Below are positions 14,827 through 23,636 of a DNA stretch of 35,932 nt, one piece after another. The notes beneath the pieces are model-generated. The model was given only the letters and a program-made list of their open reading frames with translations. It was not told the origin of the DNA and searched no databases. The stretch spans positions 1 to 35,932 of the forward strand of contig JAACFJ010000007.1 in NCBI GenBank assembly GCA_009937505.1. Reading direction: 5' to 3'. Position 1 is the stretch's first letter. The number at the start of each line of letters is the position of its first letter. This DNA is from Gammaproteobacteria bacterium (GTDB taxonomy: Bacteria; Pseudomonadota; Gammaproteobacteria; Steroidobacterales; Woeseiaceae). The position numbers were made by a program, and so were the translations under genes.

Positions 14827-14871
14827 CGTATCGACAAAAACAGCAACTCCCATGAGGGATTGGAGCCAGCG

Positions 14872-16803
14872 ATGACGGACAAAGCACCCCCCGAACTCAC
14901 TTTTCGTGCGATAGTGCTTGCGATCGTCCTCGCGGTAATTCTCGCGGCCGCCAATGCTTATCTTGGCCTCTTTGCAGGCATGACCATCGCGTCGGCGATA
15001 CCGGCCGCCGTCGTATCGATGGCCGTACTGAAGATGCTCGGTGGCGGCCACATCCTTGAGAACAATATCGTTGCGACCGGTGCATCGGCAGGCACTTCTA
15101 TTGCAACCGGCGTGATTTTCACGATTCCAGCCCTGATTCTTCTCGGCTACTGGGTTGACTTCCGCTATACGTGGGTACTCGCTATCGCCGGCCTCGGCGG
15201 ACTTCTCGGTGTGCTGTTTTCCGTGCCGTTGCGTCGATCATTGATCGTCGACCAGGGTCTCGCGTTTCCCGAAGGCAAGGCGGCGGCCGAAGTGCTTCGG
15301 ACCGGTGACCGGCCCGGGGAAGGCCTGAAGATCCTCGCGGGAGCGGCCGGCCTCGGCGGCCTGATGAAGCTGTCGGCAGGCAGCGGTTTGCGGCTCATCC
15401 CCGACACGGCCTCCGCATCGGTATGGTTCGACAAGACGATCGGCTATTTCGGCACCAACCTGTCCCCGGCACTCTTCGGCGTCGGGTATATCGTCGGACT
15501 CAACATCGGCGTCGTCATGCTTGCGGGCGGCACCATCGCATGGCTCGTCGCGATACCGATTTACAGCACTTTCTTTCTTGCTGGCGACCCCGTTCTGAGT
15601 GTCGAACTGGCCGGTGCGAGCGCGGAGGACGCCGCGTATGCGATCTGGTCGACGCAGGTCCGCTACCTGGGCGTCGGGGCGATGCTCGTTGGCGGTGTCT
15701 GGACGCTGATCTCACTGCGCAAGTCGCTCGTGTCGGGTATCAAGAGCGGTCTGACGGCAGAGCACGGCCCAGGCGGCTCGGCAGTCCCCGCCACCGAGCG
15801 CGATCTGCCCATGCGCTACATCCTGATCGGTACGGCGCTGTTCACGTTGCCGCTACTGATCCTTTACCAGGCGATCGTGGACCAATGGCTGGTCAGCATT
15901 CCGATGACGGTGATCATGATTACGGCAGGCTTCCTGTTCGTTTCGGTGTCGGCCTACATGGCCGGTCTCGTCGGCTCGTCCAATAACCCCGTGTCGGGAC
16001 TGACGATCGCGACGATCCTGTTCGCGGCGCTGGTGCTTGCGGTGCTGTTAGGGCGCAGTTCGCCTATCGGAGCCGTTGCGACAATCATGATCGGTGCCGT
16101 CGTCTGCTGCGCAGCCTGCATTGGCGGCGACAACCTGCAGGATCTCAAGTGCGGCTACATCCTCGGCGCGACGCCCTGGAAGCAGCAGTTGATGCTTGCG
16201 GTCGGCGGCGTATCGAGCGCGTTCATCATGGCGCCCGTGCTGAGCCTGCTCGCGCAGGCCTACGGTATCGGCGTGCCGACGGAAACCCACCCGAACCCGT
16301 TGCTTGCGCCACAGGCGAACCTGATGGCTTCGGTAGCCCAGGGCATCTTCGGCGGCAAGCTGCCGTGGACAATGATCGGTATCGGGGCGGCGATCGGCGT
16401 GGTGATTATCCTTCTCGACCAGTACCTGAAAAAGATCGGTGCCGCCTGGCACGTTCCGGTATTGGCCTGTGCGGTCGGCATCTATCTGCCGTTGGAGCTC
16501 AGCGTGCCGATCTTCGCGGGTGGGTTCGTTGCACATCTCGTCGAGCGCCGTTTCCCGCCGGGCGAGGCCGAGGGCGATCGTGAACGCATCCACCAGAAAG
16601 GCACCCTGTTCTCGGCGGGTTTGATTACGGGCGAGGCACTGATGGGCATTATTATCGCGATACCAATCGTTGCGGTTGGGTCGGCAGAGGTTCTGGCGCT
16701 GCCAACCGCGCTGCATTTCGGCGGTTGGCTGGGCCTGTTTTTTCTCGCTGGTGTGGGTATGACTCTTTACAGGACGGCAGTTAACCAATCGGGGCCGGTC
16801 TGA
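14872..16803 (+). CDS. OPT-family oligopeptide (or metal-chelate) transporter
   Basis: A 643-residue inner-membrane protein with about 14-16 hydrophobic segments. It belongs to the OPT family, whose bacterial members import peptides or metal complexes with protons. Visible family features are the N-terminal ELTFRAIVLAIVLAVILAAANAYLGLFAGMTIASAIPAAVV, the VDQGLAFPEGKAAAEVL motif after helix 4, the SSNNPVSGLTIATIL segment, and NLQDLKCGYILGATPWKQQ. The ATG at 14872 is chosen because GGAG stands 6 bases before it; an in-frame TTG at 14860 is less likely. The gene converges on the EncFtn-like gene with an 89-bp gap that shows no obvious terminator. Substrate not determinable from sequence. Confidence 0.93.
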   Translation: MTDKAPPELTFRAIVLAIVLAVILAAANAYLGLFAGMTIASAIPAAVVSMAVLKMLGGGHILENNIVATGASAGTSIATGVIFTIPALILLGYWVDFRYTWVLAIAGLGGLLGVLFSVPLRRSLIVDQGLAFPEGKAAAEVLRTGDRPGEGLKILAGAAGLGGLMKLSAGSGLRLIPDTASASVWFDKTIGYFGTNLSPALFGVGYIVGLNIGVVMLAGGTIAWLVAIPIYSTFFLAGDPVLSVELAGASAEDAAYAIWSTQVRYLGVGAMLVGGVWTLISLRKSLVSGIKSGLTAEHGPGGSAVPATERDLPMRYILIGTALFTLPLLILYQAIVDQWLVSIPMTVIMITAGFLFVSVSAYMAGLVGSSNNPVSGLTIATILFAALVLAVLLGRSSPIGAVATIMIGAVVCCAACIGGDNLQDLKCGYILGATPWKQQLMLAVGGVSSAFIMAPVLSLLAQAYGIGVPTETHPNPLLAPQANLMASVAQGIFGGKLPWTMIGIGAAIGVVIILLDQYLKKIGAAWHVPVLACAVGIYLPLELSVPIFAGGFVAHLVERRFPPGEAEGDRERIHQKGTLFSAGLITGEALMGIIIAIPIVAVGSAEVLALPTALHFGGWLGLFFLAGVGMTLYRTAVNQSGPV

Positions 16804-16892: not shown

Positions 16893-17180
16893 TCACTCGT
16901 GCGCGATTTTCTCGGTCGTGAAGAGATAGTCCTTCAGTTCCTTGTCGAAACTCGGGTCACGGCGCCGGATCCACTCGAGCACCATCGCGGCGTGCTCTTT
17001 TTCCTCGTCGCGGTTGTGCGCAAGGATCGCGGCGAGTTCCTTGTCCCTGCATGCGTCAACTCGCTGGTTGTACCAGTCGACCGCCTCCAGTTCCTCCATC
17101 AACGAGACGATCGCGCGGTGCATGTCGCGCGTTTCGTCGCTTAGTTCCTCGACCGGCTCGTGATAACCCTCGTTAGCCAT
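16893..17180 (-). CDS. EncFtn-like ferritin (encapsulated ferritin family), stand-alone
   Basis: A 95-residue four-helix-forming ferroxidase of the encapsulated-ferritin family. It follows the Rhodospirillum rubrum EncFtn pattern closely, with numbering shifted by two: iron-site Glu30, Glu60 and His63 (Glu32, Glu62 and His65 there), entry-site Glu29 and Glu32, and Trp36-Tyr37 in MEELEAVDWYNQRVDA, then AILAHNRDEEKEHAAMVLEW. EncFtn makes an annular decamer that oxidises Fe(II). Here the protein ends at YLFTTEKIAHE, lacking the long linker and encapsulin-targeting peptide seen at the C-terminus of cargo versions, and no encapsulin gene is in the window. The ATG at 17180 has AAAGGAG at good spacing. 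The frame is open further upstream but that extension has no similarity. It is divergent from the secreted-protein gene at 17362. Confidence 0.9.
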   Translation of the reverse strand: MANEGYHEPVEELSDETRDMHRAIVSLMEELEAVDWYNQRVDACRDKELAAILAHNRDEEKEHAAMVLEWIRRRDPSFDKELKDYLFTTEKIAHE

Positions 17181-17361
17181 GAATATCTCCTTTATCGCCA
17201 TCGTAATGCGGAAAGTGAATGCCTGCTGCAAATGATACCAAGCTGTTGTGCTCGTGCCCGCTCGCAACCGGACCACACTTCGGAAACTACGTAGAGCGAC
17301 AACGTCAACGCCGGGGCTGCCGCGCCGTTTTACTAAGTGAACGCACGAGAGGAGCGATACC

Positions 17362-17865
17362 ATGAGAACCCTACTGAAATACAGTGCACTTCTTGTCGCT
17401 GCAATGGTTCTTTTGCCCATTGACGGGTTTGCGCAGGGACGCGGACAGGGAGGCGGCGGCGACCAGGCACACGCCAGAGATCGGGCCCAGGTCGAGCGCG
17501 GCCAGTCCGATCACGATCGTGACCGCATCCGTGATCGCGACCGCATCCACGAGCCGGCCATGGATCCTGCTCAGGACGCCACGCAGACGCAGGAACGCAA
17601 ACAGTCCCAGGAGCGCATGCAGGTCCAGGAGCAAAAGCAGGTTCATGTGCCGGGCACGGGAAACGGTCCTGATTCAGACATCTACGGCCATGAAATGATG
17701 ACCGCCCAGGAACGCAACCGTTATCGCGAGCAGCTGCGGCTGGTCGAGTCCGACCCGGAACAAAAGACCCGTTTCCTCGCACAGCATCGTGAGCAGATGC
17801 AGGCCCGCGCAGGAGCGCAAGGCGTTGCGATCGGCGATGGTGGTGAGAAGGAAGAAGCCGAGTAA
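17362..17865 (+). CDS. Secreted Gln/Arg/Asp-rich protein of unknown function
   Basis: A 167-residue protein with a cleavable signal peptide (MRTLLKYSALLVAAMVLLPIDGFAQ). A low-complexity, highly charged segment follows (about residues 26-95, rich in DRD, RDR, QEQK and QERM). The C-terminal block DIYGHEMMTAQERNRYREQLRLVESDPEQKTRFLAQHREQMQARA is probably a helical hairpin; similar blocks occur in uncharacterised periplasmic proteins of proteobacteria. I know no biochemical function. An AGAGGAG ribosome site precedes the ATG. It shares direction with the beta-barrel gene 60 bp downstream, with a GC-rich hairpin between them. It could be a periplasmic chaperone or metal-binding protein, but nothing seen proves that. 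Confidence 0.8.
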   Translation: MRTLLKYSALLVAAMVLLPIDGFAQGRGQGGGGDQAHARDRAQVERGQSDHDRDRIRDRDRIHEPAMDPAQDATQTQERKQSQERMQVQEQKQVHVPGTGNGPDSDIYGHEMMTAQERNRYREQLRLVESDPEQKTRFLAQHREQMQARAGAQGVAIGDGGEKEEAE

Positions 17866-17925: not shown

Positions 17926-18750
17926 ATGAAGGCGGATAGAAGAATAACGGCGACCGTTGCGATCGCCGCGTTCGTACTCATAAGTGCAGACGGCGCAGCC
18001 CAGGATGCCGGTGCCGACCTGCGGTTTTCGACGGGGTTTGAATACAGCACCGGCAAGTATGGCGGCACCGACGATATCGAGGAACTCTATGTCCCGTTCA
18101 CCTTTCGGGCCGGGTTCGACCGGATCGGGTTTCGCCTGACGGCACCGTGGCTCAGGGTGACCGCGCCGGAAGACACGATCGTCACCGACGCCGGTGCGGA
18201 GCCTTTGCCGGGTGATGGTGCGACGGTTACCGAGAGCGGTTTCGGCGACATCGTGGGCGCGCTGACGTTCTACGATCTGTATGTCAGCGATACAGGCAAT
18301 TTCGTCGTTGACGTCACGGGAAAGATAAAGTTCGGCACCGCCGACGAGTTGAAGGGCCTCGGCACCGGGGAGAATGACTACACTTTGCAGTTCGACGCTT
18401 ACCGTTTCTTCGACAGGCTCTCGCTGCAGGGCTCGGCCGGCTACCGGTTGCGCGGCGACCCGCCCGGAGTTGGCCTTAACGACGTGTTCCTCGCATCGGT
18501 CGGGGGCGCCTACCTGGCCTCGAACAATACGATGGTCGGTATGTATCTAGACTATCGCGAAGCGGCCATCAGCGGCAGCGACGACATCCAGGAACTCTCG
18601 GGATTCGCATCGTTCCGCCTCGGCAGGGCATGGCGCATGGAGCTCTATGCGTTCACCGGCCTGACCGACAGCAGCACGGATTTCGGTGGCGGAATATTAT
18701 TCTCGACCGACCTGAGCCAGCTTCGCGTCAGCGAGCGGCAGGACTACTGA
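17926..18750 (+). CDS. Outer-membrane beta-barrel protein (transporter-like)
   Basis: A 274-residue protein with a signal peptide (ending VLISADGAAQ) and then alternating amphipathic strands with aromatic girdles: STGFEYSTGKYGG, LYVPFTFRAGFDRIGFRLTAPWLRV, FGDIVGALTFYDLY, and FFDRLSLQGSAGYRLRG. It resembles the 'putative MetA-pathway of phenol degradation' type of outer-membrane channel, but the substrate cannot be inferred. The C-terminal strand (MELYAFTGLTDSSTDFGGGILFSTDL) is followed by a short polar tail. It probably shares a message with the secreted Gln/Arg-rich gene. Its last 54 bp overlap, convergently, the 3' end of the sortase-system kinase gene, which places it at the border of that locus. 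Confidence 0.8.
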   Translation: MKADRRITATVAIAAFVLISADGAAQDAGADLRFSTGFEYSTGKYGGTDDIEELYVPFTFRAGFDRIGFRLTAPWLRVTAPEDTIVTDAGAEPLPGDGATVTESGFGDIVGALTFYDLYVSDTGNFVVDVTGKIKFGTADELKGLGTGENDYTLQFDAYRFFDRLSLQGSAGYRLRGDPPGVGLNDVFLASVGGAYLASNNTMVGMYLDYREAAISGSDDIQELSGFASFRLGRAWRMELYAFTGLTDSSTDFGGGILFSTDLSQLRVSERQDY

Positions 18751-20757
18751 GAACCGGACGCCGCCGTCGGCGTTTTCTGCCGTAATGCGGCCGCCATGGC
18801 CCTCGGCGATGAGCTTCGCGACGTAAAGGCCTAGCCCGAGGTGCTTGTCGTTGCCGCCAGCGCGCACCGACACCATCGAGTCGAAAAGCTGCGAGCGCAT
18901 GCGCTCCGGCAGCGGTGGGCCCGGGTTGTGAACACTCAACACCAGCCCGGCGTCGCTCGATTCGAGGCCGATCCTGATCAGGTCCCCCTCCGAACTGAAA
19001 TCGGCAGCATTGTCGACGAGTTTGTCGAGCATCTGGATAAGCAGCTCGGCTGAGCCGCTTACCGTCGTTGTGGCGGGCGTGCACTCGAATTCGATCCGGC
19101 GGTCGGAGTAAACGTCTTTGTATGCCTCCACGGTCGACGACAGGACATGGCGCAGCTCGAACTGCTCGGGCTCGGCATGCTCCATGATTTCCTCGACGCG
19201 ACTGGCTTCGCTCATGGCGTTGAGGATGCGGCGTAGCCGGTTGGCGCCGTCTTTGGCGCGTGCCGTGTAGTCAGCCGATGCACCTTCGAGCGCTTCGTGC
19301 TCGAGGTTTTCGAGGGATGACGTGACGATGGCAAGCGGCGTGCGAAGTTCGTGCGACAGTTTCGATGCGAGTGAGCGCAGGTAATCGTTGTAATCCGCAA
19401 GCTGGCCGAGCACGTAGGAGAAGCTGCGAGAGAGGTCGCCGACCTCGTCGCCGGATTCGGCGCTCGGCAGTGCCGCTCGAAGGCCCGGGCCTTCGAGCGC
19501 CTCTTCCGCTGCGAGACTGAGCCGCCGGATGCGCCTCGACAGCCAGGTTGCATAACCGAGCAACGCCGCCGCCACGAGTACGGTCGCGATAAGCGTGAAA
19601 TTCATCAGGCGCGCAAGACCTTCGTTCCTGAGGCTGAGGATCGCATCGGTGCCCTGCTGCAATACGACGGCTCCGATGGTGTTGCCGTCGCCGGTGACCG
19701 GTTCGGCGACGGCGACGATGGCCCTGCCGCTGTCCAGACTACGGAACCAGCTTTCCGAGCTTCGGCCGTCGAGGGCCGCAGCGATATATGGCTGACGCTC
19801 CCGGCCACTCGGATCGGGCTCGGCAAACGCGGGCTCGGTGCCGGGTTCCACGAGGGCCTTGTAAGCGATCCGCAGCCAGTTCGAGACCGCTCCCTGTACG
19901 GGTTGTGGTGCCGTCCCGGGCGAGCCCACGGCCGCAATGCGCCAGCCGCTGCGGTCGGTTATCAGCATACGCGTCCCGGGCTGCACCAGTTTTTCTGCGA
20001 GCAAAGTCAGGTCGGGCGACGTCGTGACAAACGGCCCCGGCACCTGCCCGGCGAAACTCGCGCTGCGGACACCGGCTTCGTGCTCGCTCGAGGTATTGAT
20101 GACGTTCATGCCGAGGTGGGTACCGAGCAGGTTTGCCGGGATCCGGGCCTCAACCTGGTAGCCGCCGGCGACGTCCTGCCAGCGCGCCAGCACCGCCGGC
20201 TCGGGGGCGAAGCCGAACGAGCCTCGCAAGTAGGCGATGACCGGGCCTGGCGCTTCCGCGGAGAATATCAGCGATTCGCTCGCCATCGGCGGATTCGCAC
20301 TGATTAACACGACCCGATCCGCGTAAACCGGGCCGTCGTCGATTGCGACCGTTGACGACGACGCATACACGACATCGTTATCGGTCACCGCCGCATAGAA
20401 ATAGACGTAGCGGCCGTGCAGGCCAACAGCGACGCGGATCGGACCGTCGGCACCCCTGATCTGCCGCAGCGAGCCCGGTGGGAGGGACCAGTCGTTGACG
20501 TAGCCGTCGATCAACGGTTCGGTGTCGAGACGATGTCCATACAGCTGATCGGCGGGGGTATCGTTGCCGCCGGGCCGCGCGGGGAACTCCTCCGGGTACC
20601 GTTCCAGTGATTCCGCTACGGCGCTCGCCGTTCCCGAGAGCATCTGCTGCTGGCTCTGCCGCAGCGCCGACTCAGTCTCGCGAATGAATTCGCAGCCGGC
20701 CCACGGCAGCACGAGCGTCAGCAGGCTGACCAGTAGCAACTGCCGTTTGAGATTCAT
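18697..20757 (-). CDS. pdsS: Proteobacterial dedicated sortase system histidine kinase
   Basis: A 686-residue sensor kinase that phosphorylates the neighbouring regulator. Layout: membrane helix 1 (about residues 4-20); a long periplasmic region beginning with a CBM9/DOMON-like module (PLIDGYVNDW at 81-90, strands to about 235); a second periplasmic part; membrane helix 2 (about 386-406); HAMP; the HisKA box with His469 in KLSHELRTPLAIV; and the ATPase domain with the N box at Asn583 (LDKLVDNAADFSSEGD) and the G2 box DKHLGLGLYVAKLIAEGHGG. The architecture and its position beside regulator, VIT/VWA target and sortase match the marine-proteobacterial dedicated sortase kinase family. The CBM9-like sensor suggests a carbohydrate or envelope signal (inference). 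The regulator gene ends 13 bp before it. Confidence 0.92.
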   Translation of the reverse strand: MNLKRQLLLVSLLTLVLPWAGCEFIRETESALRQSQQQMLSGTASAVAESLERYPEEFPARPGGNDTPADQLYGHRLDTEPLIDGYVNDWSLPPGSLRQIRGADGPIRVAVGLHGRYVYFYAAVTDNDVVYASSSTVAIDDGPVYADRVVLISANPPMASESLIFSAEAPGPVIAYLRGSFGFAPEPAVLARWQDVAGGYQVEARIPANLLGTHLGMNVINTSSEHEAGVRSASFAGQVPGPFVTTSPDLTLLAEKLVQPGTRMLITDRSGWRIAAVGSPGTAPQPVQGAVSNWLRIAYKALVEPGTEPAFAEPDPSGRERQPYIAAALDGRSSESWFRSLDSGRAIVAVAEPVTGDGNTIGAVVLQQGTDAILSLRNEGLARLMNFTLIATVLVAAALLGYATWLSRRIRRLSLAAEEALEGPGLRAALPSAESGDEVGDLSRSFSYVLGQLADYNDYLRSLASKLSHELRTPLAIVTSSLENLEHEALEGASADYTARAKDGANRLRRILNAMSEASRVEEIMEHAEPEQFELRHVLSSTVEAYKDVYSDRRIEFECTPATTTVSGSAELLIQMLDKLVDNAADFSSEGDLIRIGLESSDAGLVLSVHNPGPPLPERMRSQLFDSMVSVRAGGNDKHLGLGLYVAKLIAEGHGGRITAENADGGVRFSVVLPLADAKLAQVGRE

Positions 20758-20770
20758 CAGGGCTTCGCGG

Positions 20771-21463
20771 TTAGTCCGCTATCCAGCGGTAGCCCATGCC
20801 GTAGACGGTTTCGATGCAGCCGAAGTCGGCGTCGACGGCCTGGAACTTGCGTCGAATACGCTTCACGTGGGATGTGATCGTGTTGTCGTCGAGCACGGCC
20901 TGTGCAGCGTCCATGAGCTGCTGCCGATTCTTGACGTGGCCAGGGTAACGCGCCATCGCGTGCACCAGCCAGAACTCCGTCAGCGTCAGGCCGACCGGAA
21001 TGCCCTGCCACTGTACGGTCATCCTGTCGGTATCGATCTCCAGGCTGCCGCGGGTGATGCGCCCGCCCTCTGCCTGCGGTTTCTGCATTGCGTCGAGACG
21101 GCGAAATAACGCTGCGATTCGCGCCATCAGGTGCGGGAGGCTGATGTCCTTGGTGAGGTAGTCGTCGGCGCCCAGGCGCAGTCCGGACACCGCATCGAAC
21201 TCGCTGTCCCGTGCAGTCAGGAAGATGATCGGCAGGTCTGCCGACTGAGCCCGCAGTTCCCGGCACAGTTCGAAGCCGCCTTCGACGTCGTCCTTCAGGT
21301 TGATGTCGATGACGACGAGGTCGGGCAGCCTTGACGCAAAGGCTTCCAGAGCCGGGGCGCGCGAATCGTACGCGTCCACGGCGTAACCCTCGCGGCGAAA
21401 AGCCGCCGCGTAGTTGTCGCGGATTGCCGCCTCGTCTTCGACGATCGCTATGCGTTTGGCCAA
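20771..21463 (-). CDS. pdsR: Proteobacterial dedicated sortase system response regulator
   Basis: A 230-residue OmpR/PhoB-type regulator. The receiver domain (residues 1-120) has the acidic pair Glu9-Asp10 and Glu11 (IAIVEDEAAIR), phosphoacceptor Asp53 (LVVIDINLKDD) and the conserved Lys in DDYLTKD. The C-terminal winged helix (about 140-228) shows TLTEFWLVHAMARYPGHVKNRQQLMDA and the recognition helix HVKRIRRKFQ. The start is set at a TTG (21463): GGGGGA stands 6 bases before it and the protein then begins directly with KRIAIVEDE as in homologs. An upstream TTG at 21490 lacks that support. It is cotranscribed with the kinase gene (13-bp gap) and divergent from the sortase target gene. Direct repeats in the shared promoter are a likely binding site. 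Confidence 0.92.
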   Translation of the reverse strand: MAKRIAIVEDEAAIRDNYAAAFRREGYAVDAYDSRAPALEAFASRLPDLVVIDINLKDDVEGGFELCRELRAQSADLPIIFLTARDSEFDAVSGLRLGADDYLTKDISLPHLMARIAALFRRLDAMQKPQAEGGRITRGSLEIDTDRMTVQWQGIPVGLTLTEFWLVHAMARYPGHVKNRQQLMDAAQAVLDDNTITSHVKRIRRKFQAVDADFGCIETVYGMGYRWIAD

Positions 21464-21483
21464 ATCGAATCCCCCGGAACCTG

Positions 21484-21520
21484 GCCACAATTTGCCACAT
21501 TACGCCGGTGCATTGCCATG
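21484..21520. promoter_or_regulatory. Tandem direct repeats with ~10-bp period, candidate PdsR binding site
   Basis: GCCACA at 21484 and again at 21494, then weaker copies GCCGGT at 21504 and GCCATG at 21515, fall on the same helix face. They lie in the 121-bp region between the divergent regulator and target genes. OmpR/PhoB-family regulators usually bind direct repeats spaced about 10-11 bp, which makes the adjacent regulator the natural candidate. The link is inferred. Confidence 0.5.
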
Positions 21521-21584
21521 CCGTCGTCCGTGGCGCGACGTATTGGATTGTTTGAATCACCGTAGCGCTGCCGGGAGACCCGTA

Positions 21585-23636
21585 ATGTCACAACAAAAAG
21601 CACTGATGATAATGGTCGTTGCGATTGCCTGGCTGTGGATGCCTGTCGCAACGGGCGAGGAATGGCGGCCGGCAGACGTACAGTCCGGCACGCTGCTCCT
21701 GAAAATGCAGGCGGGGATCGTCGCGGCGACCCGCACGAACACTGAAGTCACGATGACCATAAGCGGCCTCGTTGCACGCGTGTCGGTCCGCCAGGAATTT
21801 CGCAATGAAGGCGGAGAGTGGGTCGAGGGCATCTACGTATTTCCATTGCCGGACGAGGCGGCGGTCGATCGCATGCGGCTGCATATCGGCGAGCGTTTTA
21901 TCGAGGGAGAAATCCGGGAGAAGGAAAAGGCGAGGAAGGACTATGAGCGCGCACGTAGCGAAGGCAGGAAGGCCAGCCTCGTCGAACAGCAGCGCCCGAA
22001 CCTTTTCACGACGTCCGTGGCAAACATAGCGCCGGGGGAACGGGTCGTTGTCGAAATCGAATACTTCGAAGACCTGCATTACGACAATGGCACCTTCGCT
22101 ATCCGTTTTCCCATGACCCTGACGCCTCGCTATATTCCGGGCGCGCCGCTTCCCGACCGGAAGGGCAGCGGCTGGTCGCCCGATACGATACGGGTGAGCG
22201 ACGCATCCTTCATTACGCCGCCGCAGGTGACGGAATCTCGCGACCATAAGATCTCGCTGCGTGCCAGCATCGATGCCGGGATGCCGCTGGAGATCGTTGC
22301 CAGCCGATATCACCCGGTGGACGTTTCAGAGAGCAACAGCCGGTACACGGTATCGCTGGCCAACGACTCGGTTCCGATGGACCACGACTTCGAGCTGTTA
22401 TGGCGGCCGGTGCCCTCTGCCGTGCCGCGCGCAATGGTGTTCAGCGAGACCATCGAAGAGCAGCCTCACTATTTGCTCATGGTCGTACCGCCCGACGCCG
22501 CGAAGGATGTGCCGCTGTCCATGCCGCGCGAGCTGCTTTTCGTCGTGGATACTTCCGGGTCCATGCATGGCGTCTCGATCGCCCAGGCAAGAAAAGCCCT
22601 GGGACAGGCTCTCGATGGTTTGAGCGCCAATGATCGCTTCAACATCATCGAGTTCAACTCGGCGACAAGGGCGCTTTTTCACCAGAGCGTTGCGGCCGAC
22701 GCCGCAAACGTCGCTCATGCACGGAATTTCGTGCAGGGGCTCGAGGCAAACGGTGGTACCGAGATGCGGCCGGCCCTCAGGCTCGCGCTGGATTCGGCGG
22801 CCGTCGAATCGCACCTGCGGCAAATCGTGTTCATCACCGACGGGAGTGTCGGCAACGAAGAAGAACTCTACGAGATGATCGAGGCGCGACTCGGCAATGC
22901 ACGGTTGTTTACGGTGGGTATCGGTTCCGCACCCAACAGCTGGTTCATGCGCAAGGCGGCAGAACTCGGACGCGGGACCTTCGTCGTGATCAGCGCACTA
23001 CACGAGGTCGGCGAGAAGATGGATCGCTTGTTCGACAAGCTCAGGAATCCGCAGGTTACGAACATTAATGTCAGCTGGCCGGGCGGCACGGTAATGGAGA
23101 CTTATCCGGACACCGTGCCCGATCTTTATCTCGGCGAGCCCGTTACGGTCAGGGCGAAGGCGGCAGTACCTTTCCTGCCGGGTTCTGCGGTCCGTGTCAG
23201 CGGGGATTCGGCTGCCGGGGCATGGACCCGCGATCTACCGCTGGAAAGCGGCGAGGACAATCCGGGTATCGGTGCGCTCTGGGCGCGGGCGAAGATCGCT
23301 GCGCTTCACGACGAGGAGCGGCGGGGCGCAGATCCCGAGCTAACCCGGAAAGCGGTCATCGATACCGCGGTTGCCCACCATCTCGTCAGCAAGTACACGA
23401 GCCTGGTCGCGGTTGACAAGACGCCGGTGCGGCCCGCCGGCGATCTGCTCGCGAGGGAACCGGTGCCGAACCTGCTGCCTTACGGTCAAAGCATGAACGC
23501 GATATTCGGTTTCCCGGCGACCGCGACGAACGCGCCCGTACTGCAGCGGCGCGGCCTGCTGATGTTATCCGTGGCCCTGCTGTTGCTCGGCGCGGGAACT
23601 TTGCGGCGGAGCGTAAACCGTGCGCGGCTGGCCTAG
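21585..23636 (+). CDS. Marine proteobacterial sortase target protein (VIT + VWA)
   Basis: A 683-residue surface protein, the dedicated substrate of the neighbouring sortase. A signal peptide (MSQQKALMIMVVAIAWLWMPVATGEE) is followed by a VIT domain (about residues 35-185; VRQEFRNEGGEWVEGIYVFPLP, NIAPGERVVVEIEY). A von Willebrand A domain comes next, with a complete MIDAS motif, Asp322-x-Ser324-x-Ser326 in VVDTSGSMHG, and FITDGSVGNE. The C-terminal sorting region is FPATA (643-647), a hydrophobic helix (LLMLSVALLLLGAG) and a basic tail (RRSVNRAR). The pentapeptide differs from canonical LPXTG. The ATG at 21585 has GGGAG 7 bases upstream and directly begins the signal peptide. The sortase gene overlaps its 3' end if the GTG start there is used. 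Confidence 0.93.
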   Translation: MSQQKALMIMVVAIAWLWMPVATGEEWRPADVQSGTLLLKMQAGIVAATRTNTEVTMTISGLVARVSVRQEFRNEGGEWVEGIYVFPLPDEAAVDRMRLHIGERFIEGEIREKEKARKDYERARSEGRKASLVEQQRPNLFTTSVANIAPGERVVVEIEYFEDLHYDNGTFAIRFPMTLTPRYIPGAPLPDRKGSGWSPDTIRVSDASFITPPQVTESRDHKISLRASIDAGMPLEIVASRYHPVDVSESNSRYTVSLANDSVPMDHDFELLWRPVPSAVPRAMVFSETIEEQPHYLLMVVPPDAAKDVPLSMPRELLFVVDTSGSMHGVSIAQARKALGQALDGLSANDRFNIIEFNSATRALFHQSVAADAANVAHARNFVQGLEANGGTEMRPALRLALDSAAVESHLRQIVFITDGSVGNEEELYEMIEARLGNARLFTVGIGSAPNSWFMRKAAELGRGTFVVISALHEVGEKMDRLFDKLRNPQVTNINVSWPGGTVMETYPDTVPDLYLGEPVTVRAKAAVPFLPGSAVRVSGDSAAGAWTRDLPLESGEDNPGIGALWARAKIAALHDEERRGADPELTRKAVIDTAVAHHLVSKYTSLVAVDKTPVRPAGDLLAREPVPNLLPYGQSMNAIFGFPATATNAPVLQRRGLLMLSVALLLLGAGTLRRSVNRARLA

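What the first reader, a model, noticed from the sequence alone, without database searches (positions are those of the whole stretch)
16893..17180. Orphan EncFtn without encapsulin or cargo tail
Seen: all iron-site residues of encapsulated ferritin (Glu30, Glu60, His63, Trp36, Tyr37) in a 95-residue protein that ends right after the ferritin-like helices. No encapsulin shell gene is in the 17 kb to either side. Known: EncFtn normally sits beside encapsulin and carries a C-terminal targeting peptide. Inference: a free-standing ferroxidase ring, perhaps detoxifying iron without storage, or one that relies on a shell encoded elsewhere.
Basis: partly seen in the sequence, partly recalled or inferred. 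Interest (0 to 1): 0.6.

Follow-up and report, generated by a model that had tools for sequence, protein, structure and literature searches.

The report
Shell-free EncFtn ferroxidase ring protein
The gene encodes a short iron-oxidising ring protein of the encapsulated-ferritin family that works without a capsule; this shell-free form is already known and turns out to be the common form in its bacterial class, and in some relatives it sits inside a peroxide-defence operon.

Summary
The minus-strand ORF 16893-17180 is a 95-residue EncFtn (PF22277, 152 bits) with the known ferroxidase residues, no targeting tail, and no encapsulin gene in the window. It is not an oddity. Its full-length match is Nitrosomonas europaea NE0167 (PDB 3K6C, also 95 aa, ten chains). 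Tail-less EncFtn has been in print as "noEncFlp" (2019) and "s-FLP" (2024), but whether it is encapsulated was left open. I tested that question. Of 274 genomes of the class, 79 have EncFtn and 14 have an encapsulin shell. In all 14, an EncFtn copy with a tail, or fused to the shell, lies beside the shell. None of the 66 genomes with the short form shows a targeting peptide on it; 62 of them have no family-1 shell, and the other 4 also carry a separate tailed or fused copy. No shell occurs in 25 genomes of the window's genus. So a shell elsewhere is very unlikely. One further result: in 19 of 66 genomes the short gene lies within about 1 kb of DUF3501, mostly inside a rubrerythrin-RFO-DUF3501 operon, which suggests peroxide/iron defence. 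In the window's genome that operon exists elsewhere, without EncFtn.

The parts
16893..17180 (-). Short, tail-less EncFtn (s-FLP / noEncFlp), 95 aa plus stop
   Evidence: purifying selection; AlphaFold model pLDDT 87, best PDB match 3k6c
17187..17192 (-). Shine-Dalgarno AAGGAG upstream of the ATG
   Evidence: Sequence; AGGAG-containing words are the commonest shared upstream words among 122 homologues not in the DUF3501 operon
17091..17093 (-). Codon for Glu30 (= R. rubrum E32), ferroxidase ligand
   Evidence: Alignment; R. rubrum residue list
17070..17072 (-). Codon for Tyr37 (= R. rubrum Y39)
   Evidence: Alignment; residue list
17001..17003 (-). Codon for Glu60 (= R. rubrum E62), ferroxidase ligand
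   Evidence: Alignment; residue list
16992..16994 (-). Codon for His63 (= R. rubrum H65), ferroxidase ligand
   Evidence: Alignment; residue list
16896..16907 (-). Codons for the conserved C-terminus Ile-Ala-His-Glu; function unknown, kept in shell-less genomes
   Evidence: His in 80 of 80 named homologues; pattern in 116 of 126 loci without DUF3501 nearby and 8 of 20 with it

Best explanation
The gene makes a shell-free EncFtn. The protein most likely assembles in the cytosol into the ten-subunit ring seen for its 95-residue homologue 3K6C and forms di-iron ferroxidase sites between subunits (E30, E60, H63, Y37). It oxidises surplus Fe(II), using O2 or peroxide, and releases Fe(III) to other sinks rather than into an encapsulin. 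Its role is probably to lower Fenton-active iron during peroxide or oxygen stress, alongside the aerobic-type rubrerythrin system. Shown: the sequence family, the residues, the absence of a tail and a shell, the class-wide split between tailed and tail-less forms, and the operon link in part of the relatives. Inferred: ring, activity, oxidant, and the stress role of this copy.
For: Family and residues. Fold: AlphaFold model (pLDDT 87.0, pTM 0.71) matches 3k6c, 5da5 and 5n5f best. Ten-chain, 95-aa homologue 3K6C. No shell: own 0, 0 of 25 own-genus genomes including itself, G167 0. Class survey: PF22277 79 of 274, PF04454 14 of 274; all 14 shells have a tailed or fused EncFtn beside them; 62 of 66 short-form genomes have no family-1 shell and the other 4 (G014, G196, G236, G247) carry a separate tailed or fused copy. 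Family-2 shell in 2 of 66. Named relatives: 50 of the 80 loci tested, 1 of 50 has a shell (Sulfuricella T08), which has its own tailed EncFtn. Tree: shell-linked rows need 2 changes, shuffled mean 13.1, 0 of 500 as low. Stress link: DUF3501 in 47 of 66 short-form genomes and 72 of the 208 others; within about 1 kb in 19 of 66 (coordinates); near 0 of 15 tailed loci. In nine loci the order is rubrerythrin, RFO, EncFtn, DUF3501.
Against: No assay exists for this protein. In R. rubrum, EncFtn without its shell aggregated on iron addition, and the authors state it cannot mineralise iron on its surface (PMC5012862 passages), so a shell-less ring needs a sink that I have not identified. The stress link is partial: 3 of 80 named loci have DUF3501 nearby, the window copy does not, and on the tree the operon label is no more clustered than chance (15 changes, shuffled mean 15.7). 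The 47/66 against 72/208 contrast (Fisher p 2e-7) is not corrected for kinship. No shared regulator motif was found upstream of 122 copies outside the operon.
Confidence: 0.62

Rival explanations
1. The ring is a partner of the aerobic-type rubrerythrin system rather than an iron detoxifier: it loads iron into rubrerythrin, or serves as a second diiron peroxidase fed with electrons by the Fe-S protein RFO.
For: DUF3501 and RFO both lie near EncFtn in 16 of 146 short loci, mostly immediately beside it with short gaps or overlaps, nine of them with rubrerythrin also in the held flank. RFO is thought to be an electron-transfer protein (PMC5114695 passages).
Against: Most copies, including the window's, are not in that operon, and in the window's genome RFO and DUF3501 overlap directly without EncFtn. 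19 of 66 short-form genomes lack DUF3501.
Confidence: 0.24
2. The short form is still encapsulin cargo, loaded by an unrecognised signal in its last ten residues (a putative targeting peptide LFT..KPIAHE is listed in PMC11202242, Table 2).
For: The C-terminus is strongly conserved (His 80 of 80), and the 2024 review leaves the question open.
Against: That same C-terminus is conserved in genomes without any family-1 shell (62 of 66 short-form genomes have none); family-2 shells occur in 2 of 66. Genomes with a shell have a separate EncFtn with a classical tail or fusion. The own genome is 88% complete, but 0 of 24 further same-genus genomes has a shell.
Confidence: 0.05
3. A relic: cargo left behind after loss of its shell, with no present function.
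For: Ancestral cargo losing its tail after the shell is a conceivable origin, and the tree cannot order gain and loss.
Against: Strong purifying selection (pN 0.053, pS 0.626 to the nearest homologue; median pN 0.10 over 76 comparisons), and 66 of 274 genomes keep the short form.
Confidence: 0.02

Closest known systems
Nitrosomonas europaea NE0167 (PDB 3K6C), type member of the s-FLP / noEncFlp class
   Same: 95 aa, no targeting peptide, full-length alignment with E 6.5e-50, ferroxidase residues, C-terminus IAHE; the Nitrosomonas genome tested (L077) has no PF04454 shell
   Different: Leu instead of Trp at position 36; NE0167 has a solved structure, described as unpublished in the review
Rhodospirillum rubrum EncFtn Rru_A0973 (FLP-TP, encapsulin cargo)
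   Same: Same domain and ferroxidase residues (E32, Y39, E62, H65)
Aerobic-type rubrerythrin-RFO-DUF3501 gene cluster
   Same: Some short EncFtn genes are embedded in this cluster
   Different: Described in 2016 as three genes; the main text has no mention of encapsulin and its figure legend lists only a 'hypothetical protein' as a further neighbour. In the window's genome the cluster is on other contigs without EncFtn

Membership tests
EncFtn-like (Pfam PF22277) | Score over the curated cut-off across the domain | tested here: met
   152.4 bits against 27, profile 2-84 of 85
EncFtn-like (Pfam PF22277) | Ferroxidase residues Glu, Tyr, Glu, His | tested here: met
   E30, Y37, E60, H63 invariant in 20 aligned sequences
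EncFtn-like (Pfam PF22277) | D5 decamer | not testable with these tools
   Only the monomer was modelled; the 95-aa homologue 3K6C has ten chains
Encapsulin cargo (FLP-TP; the name of NCBIfam TIGR04535) | C-terminal targeting peptide | tested here: not met
   Ends LFTTEKIAHE; no motif in three frames downstream
Encapsulin cargo (FLP-TP; the name of NCBIfam TIGR04535) | Encapsulin shell gene beside it or in the genome | tested here: not met
   PF04454 and PF19307 0 in the own assembly; 0 of 25 genomes in the genus, own included. Caveat: own assembly 88% complete
s-FLP / noEncFlp (short, non-encapsulated EncFtn) | About 95 aa, no targeting peptide, outside encapsulin operons | tested here: met
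   definitions in PMC6668986 and PMC11202242
Aerobic-type rubrerythrin cluster | Located with rubrerythrin, RFO and DUF3501 | tested here: not met
   Window copy is alone; the cluster lies on contigs C76/C124. Met in nine of 146 short loci for all three genes

The most novel reading that the evidence does not exclude
Shell-free EncFtn rings are a widespread class of ferroxidase in their own right and a fourth, optional component of the aerobic rubrerythrin peroxide-defence system. The ring removes Fe(II), or supplies iron, where peroxide is being reduced; standalone copies such as the window's act in trans and carry a distinct conserved Ile-Ala-His C-terminus. Encapsulin cargo would then be the minority specialisation of this family in this class.
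Probability: 0.35. Interest if true: 0.62.

Novelty: new member of a known kind. Interest (0 to 1): 0.36.

Why it matters
It bears on a question the 2024 review leaves open: whether short EncFtn proteins are encapsulated. The genome counts say they are not, so how a ferroxidase ring copes without a storage shell becomes a concrete, testable problem, with NE0167 as ready material. It also shows that the NCBI name "encapsulin-associated ferritin-like protein" misleads: the window's shell-less protein scores above that model's cut-off, while a truly shell-linked one falls just below it. The rubrerythrin operon link gives a first hint of function.

Tried and rejected
Shell elsewhere in the genome: searched and not found. 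Family-2 shell as host: 2 of 66 short-form genomes only; the first such search had a silent control, and one search gave strong hits in two genomes. Hidden tail by frameshift: rejected. Short EncFtn as a replacement for canonical ferritins: not supported; 45 of 66 short-form genomes also have a strong PF00210 hit (E below 1e-14; values counted). The own genome has none over the cut-off but is incomplete, and the same-genus genome G167 has one at 2.3e-38. Common regulator: motif scan of 122 upstream regions found only the Shine-Dalgarno sequence; the promoter scan of the window region found no promoter-like site. Conserved neighbours of the window copy itself: none found; even within the genus the location differs (G167 copy beside what I read as pheT and ihfA). 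A first neighbour survey found EncFtn in only 47 of its 81 sequences because of its gene caller and was replaced.

Rows dropped before the class count: of 82 genomes with a PF22277 match at E 0.001 or better, three are below the cut-off; of the 79 above it, G002 and G027 are short fragments and G087 is a 27-bit match. This leaves 66 short-form and 10 tailed-only genomes. One short-form protein (L148, G074) is 122 aa with a lysine-rich tail but no targeting motif. One shell-linked tail (L176, G260) is degenerate (FTVGKP). In the phylum draw (19 of 299 over cut-off), 16 genomes were tested for a shell and 3 have one: in G450 a tailed EncFtn lies beside it; in G365 and G385 the EncFtn is divergent, has no targeting motif and is far from the shell (coordinates, tails).

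Full report
The feature. The minus strand of 16893-17180 encodes a 95-residue protein. It matches Pfam EncFtn-like with 152.4 bits and TIGR04535 with 136.2 bits, both over cut-off. The closest solved structure is 3K6C, N. europaea NE0167, aligned end to end at E 6.5e-50; it too has 95 residues, and the entry has ten chains. An AlphaFold model from 20 aligned sequences (pLDDT 87.0, pTM 0.71) matches 3k6c first, then R. rubrum and H. ochraceum EncFtn. The ferroxidase residues E30, Y37, E60, H63 are in place; W36 is not in the published list for the iron site and is Leu in 3K6C. Substitutions against 76 homologues are overwhelmingly synonymous.

Is it normal for its kind? EncFtn without a tail is not new. 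PMC6668986 (passages read) draws a group "noEncFlp": found outside encapsulin operons, no targeting peptide. PMC11202242 (one section and passages read) names "s-FLP", cites Giessen and Silver 2017 for calling them non-encapsulated, and says it is unclear whether the last ten residues hold an undefined binding sequence, listing LFT..KPIAHE as a putative, uncharacterised targeting peptide. The 2017 paper itself is not held.

Test of encapsulation by counts. In 274 genomes of the window's class, EncFtn is over the cut-off in 79 and the encapsulin shell in 14. In all 14 shell genomes an EncFtn lies beside the shell or is fused to it (coordinates); the 13 unfused ones carry a targeting-like motif such as SLGIGSLK, LTVGSLK or FTIGSLK, one of them degenerate. 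The remaining full-length copies are the short form, in 66 genomes: 65 are 86-103 aa and one is 122 aa; none has the motif. Of these 66, 62 have no family-1 shell; the other four (G014, G196, G236, G247) have a second, tailed or fused copy at the shell. Family-2 shells are in 2 of 66. Among 80 named close relatives (the best 80 of 584), 71 are exactly 95 aa. I tested 50 of these 80 for a shell: 1 of 50, Sulfuricella T08, has one, with its own tailed EncFtn upstream. In the window's genus 0 of 25 genomes, own included, has a shell, and G167 has none. On a tree of 80 proteins the shell-linked rows need only 2 changes (shuffled mean 13.1, 0 of 500 as low), though the tree is weakly resolved from 95 columns. 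I conclude that the short form is a distinct, shell-free form and the prevalent one in this class.

The C-terminus. The last residues are conserved where there is no shell: His in 80 of 80 named relatives. The pattern [IVL][ATSG]H near the end is in 116 of 126 short loci without a nearby DUF3501 but in 8 of 20 with one. A shell cannot be what conserves it. Its function is unknown.

Neighbours. Across 145 short loci the commonest conserved neighbours are DUF3501 just downstream, a CCG-domain Fe-S protein just upstream, and rubrerythrin about 1.4 kb upstream. Pfam confirms these in L025, where a Fur-family regulator and a di-haem cytochrome c peroxidase lie next to the cluster; that regulator and peroxidase recur only in L079. 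This is the aerobic-type rubrerythrin, RFO, DUF3501 cluster of PMC5114695 (passages read), whose main text does not mention encapsulins. By the coordinates, 19 of 66 short-form genomes have DUF3501 within about 1 kb of EncFtn; by protein search in the held flanks 17 of 66 survey loci, 3 of 80 named loci and 0 of 15 tailed loci. DUF3501 is present anywhere in 47 of 66 short-form genomes and in 72 of the 208 others (Fisher p 2e-7, not corrected for kinship). On the tree the operon label is scattered (15 changes, shuffled mean 15.7), so the link does not mark one subclade; poor resolution limits this. The literature searches listed no paper whose title or abstract start reports this link; they cover open-licence papers only, and only the papers named here were opened.

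The window's own genome. DUF3501 (L190:1533-2126) and RFO (L190:193-1536) overlap directly, and a reading frame that I read as rubrerythrin runs off the end of contig C76 (L191 from 5932); EncFtn is not among them. The window copy stands alone between an OPT transporter (14860-16803) and a secreted-looking low-complexity protein (17362-17865). No canonical ferritin reached the cut-off in this 88%-complete assembly.

Mechanism. Established for R. rubrum EncFtn: ring, ferroxidase at the dimer interface, and no mineralisation on its own surface (PMC5012862 passages). Carrying this over, the window protein most likely forms a free ring that oxidises Fe(II). Where the Fe(III) goes is not known. The operon link in relatives makes peroxide and iron stress the likeliest setting. 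For the window copy this is inference by homology, since it is not in the operon.

Verdict. Observation confirmed; interpretation partly supported; a new member of a known kind. The added value is the count-based answer to the encapsulation question and the rubrerythrin-operon lead.

Noticed in passing
window 18697-23636: Proteobacterial dedicated sortase system: histidine kinase (TIGR03785, 534.8 bits, below its 612.2 cut-off), response regulator (TIGR03787, above cut-off) and sortase target protein (TIGR03788, above cut-off).
   Followed up: partly
window 17362-17865 (+) and 17926-18750 (+): A secreted-looking Arg/Asp/Gln-rich protein and a 274-aa protein with a signal-like start, neither with a Pfam or NCBIfam match, divergently transcribed from the EncFtn gene.
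   Followed up: no
L183:1107-1487 and window 16893-17180: TIGR04535 'encapsulin-associated ferritin-like' scores the shell-less window protein above its cut-off (136.2 against 125) but the shell-linked Sulfuricella protein just below (124.5).
   Followed up: yes
L179 (G196:C227:1954-10205): An EncFtn-encapsulin fusion in a single 492-aa open frame in this class; PMC11202242 calls fusion-FLPs commonly archaeal.
   Followed up: no
L210-L213 (G385, G365, G434, G584): Divergent EncFtn without targeting motif (about 84 bits) in one genus of another class of the phylum; two of the four genomes have an encapsulin shell far from it.
   Followed up: no
L025 4038-5852 and L079: A Fur-family regulator closest to Irr/PerR models and a di-haem cytochrome c peroxidase lie divergently next to the rubrerythrin-RFO-EncFtn-DUF3501 cluster in 2 of 146 loci.
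   Followed up: partly
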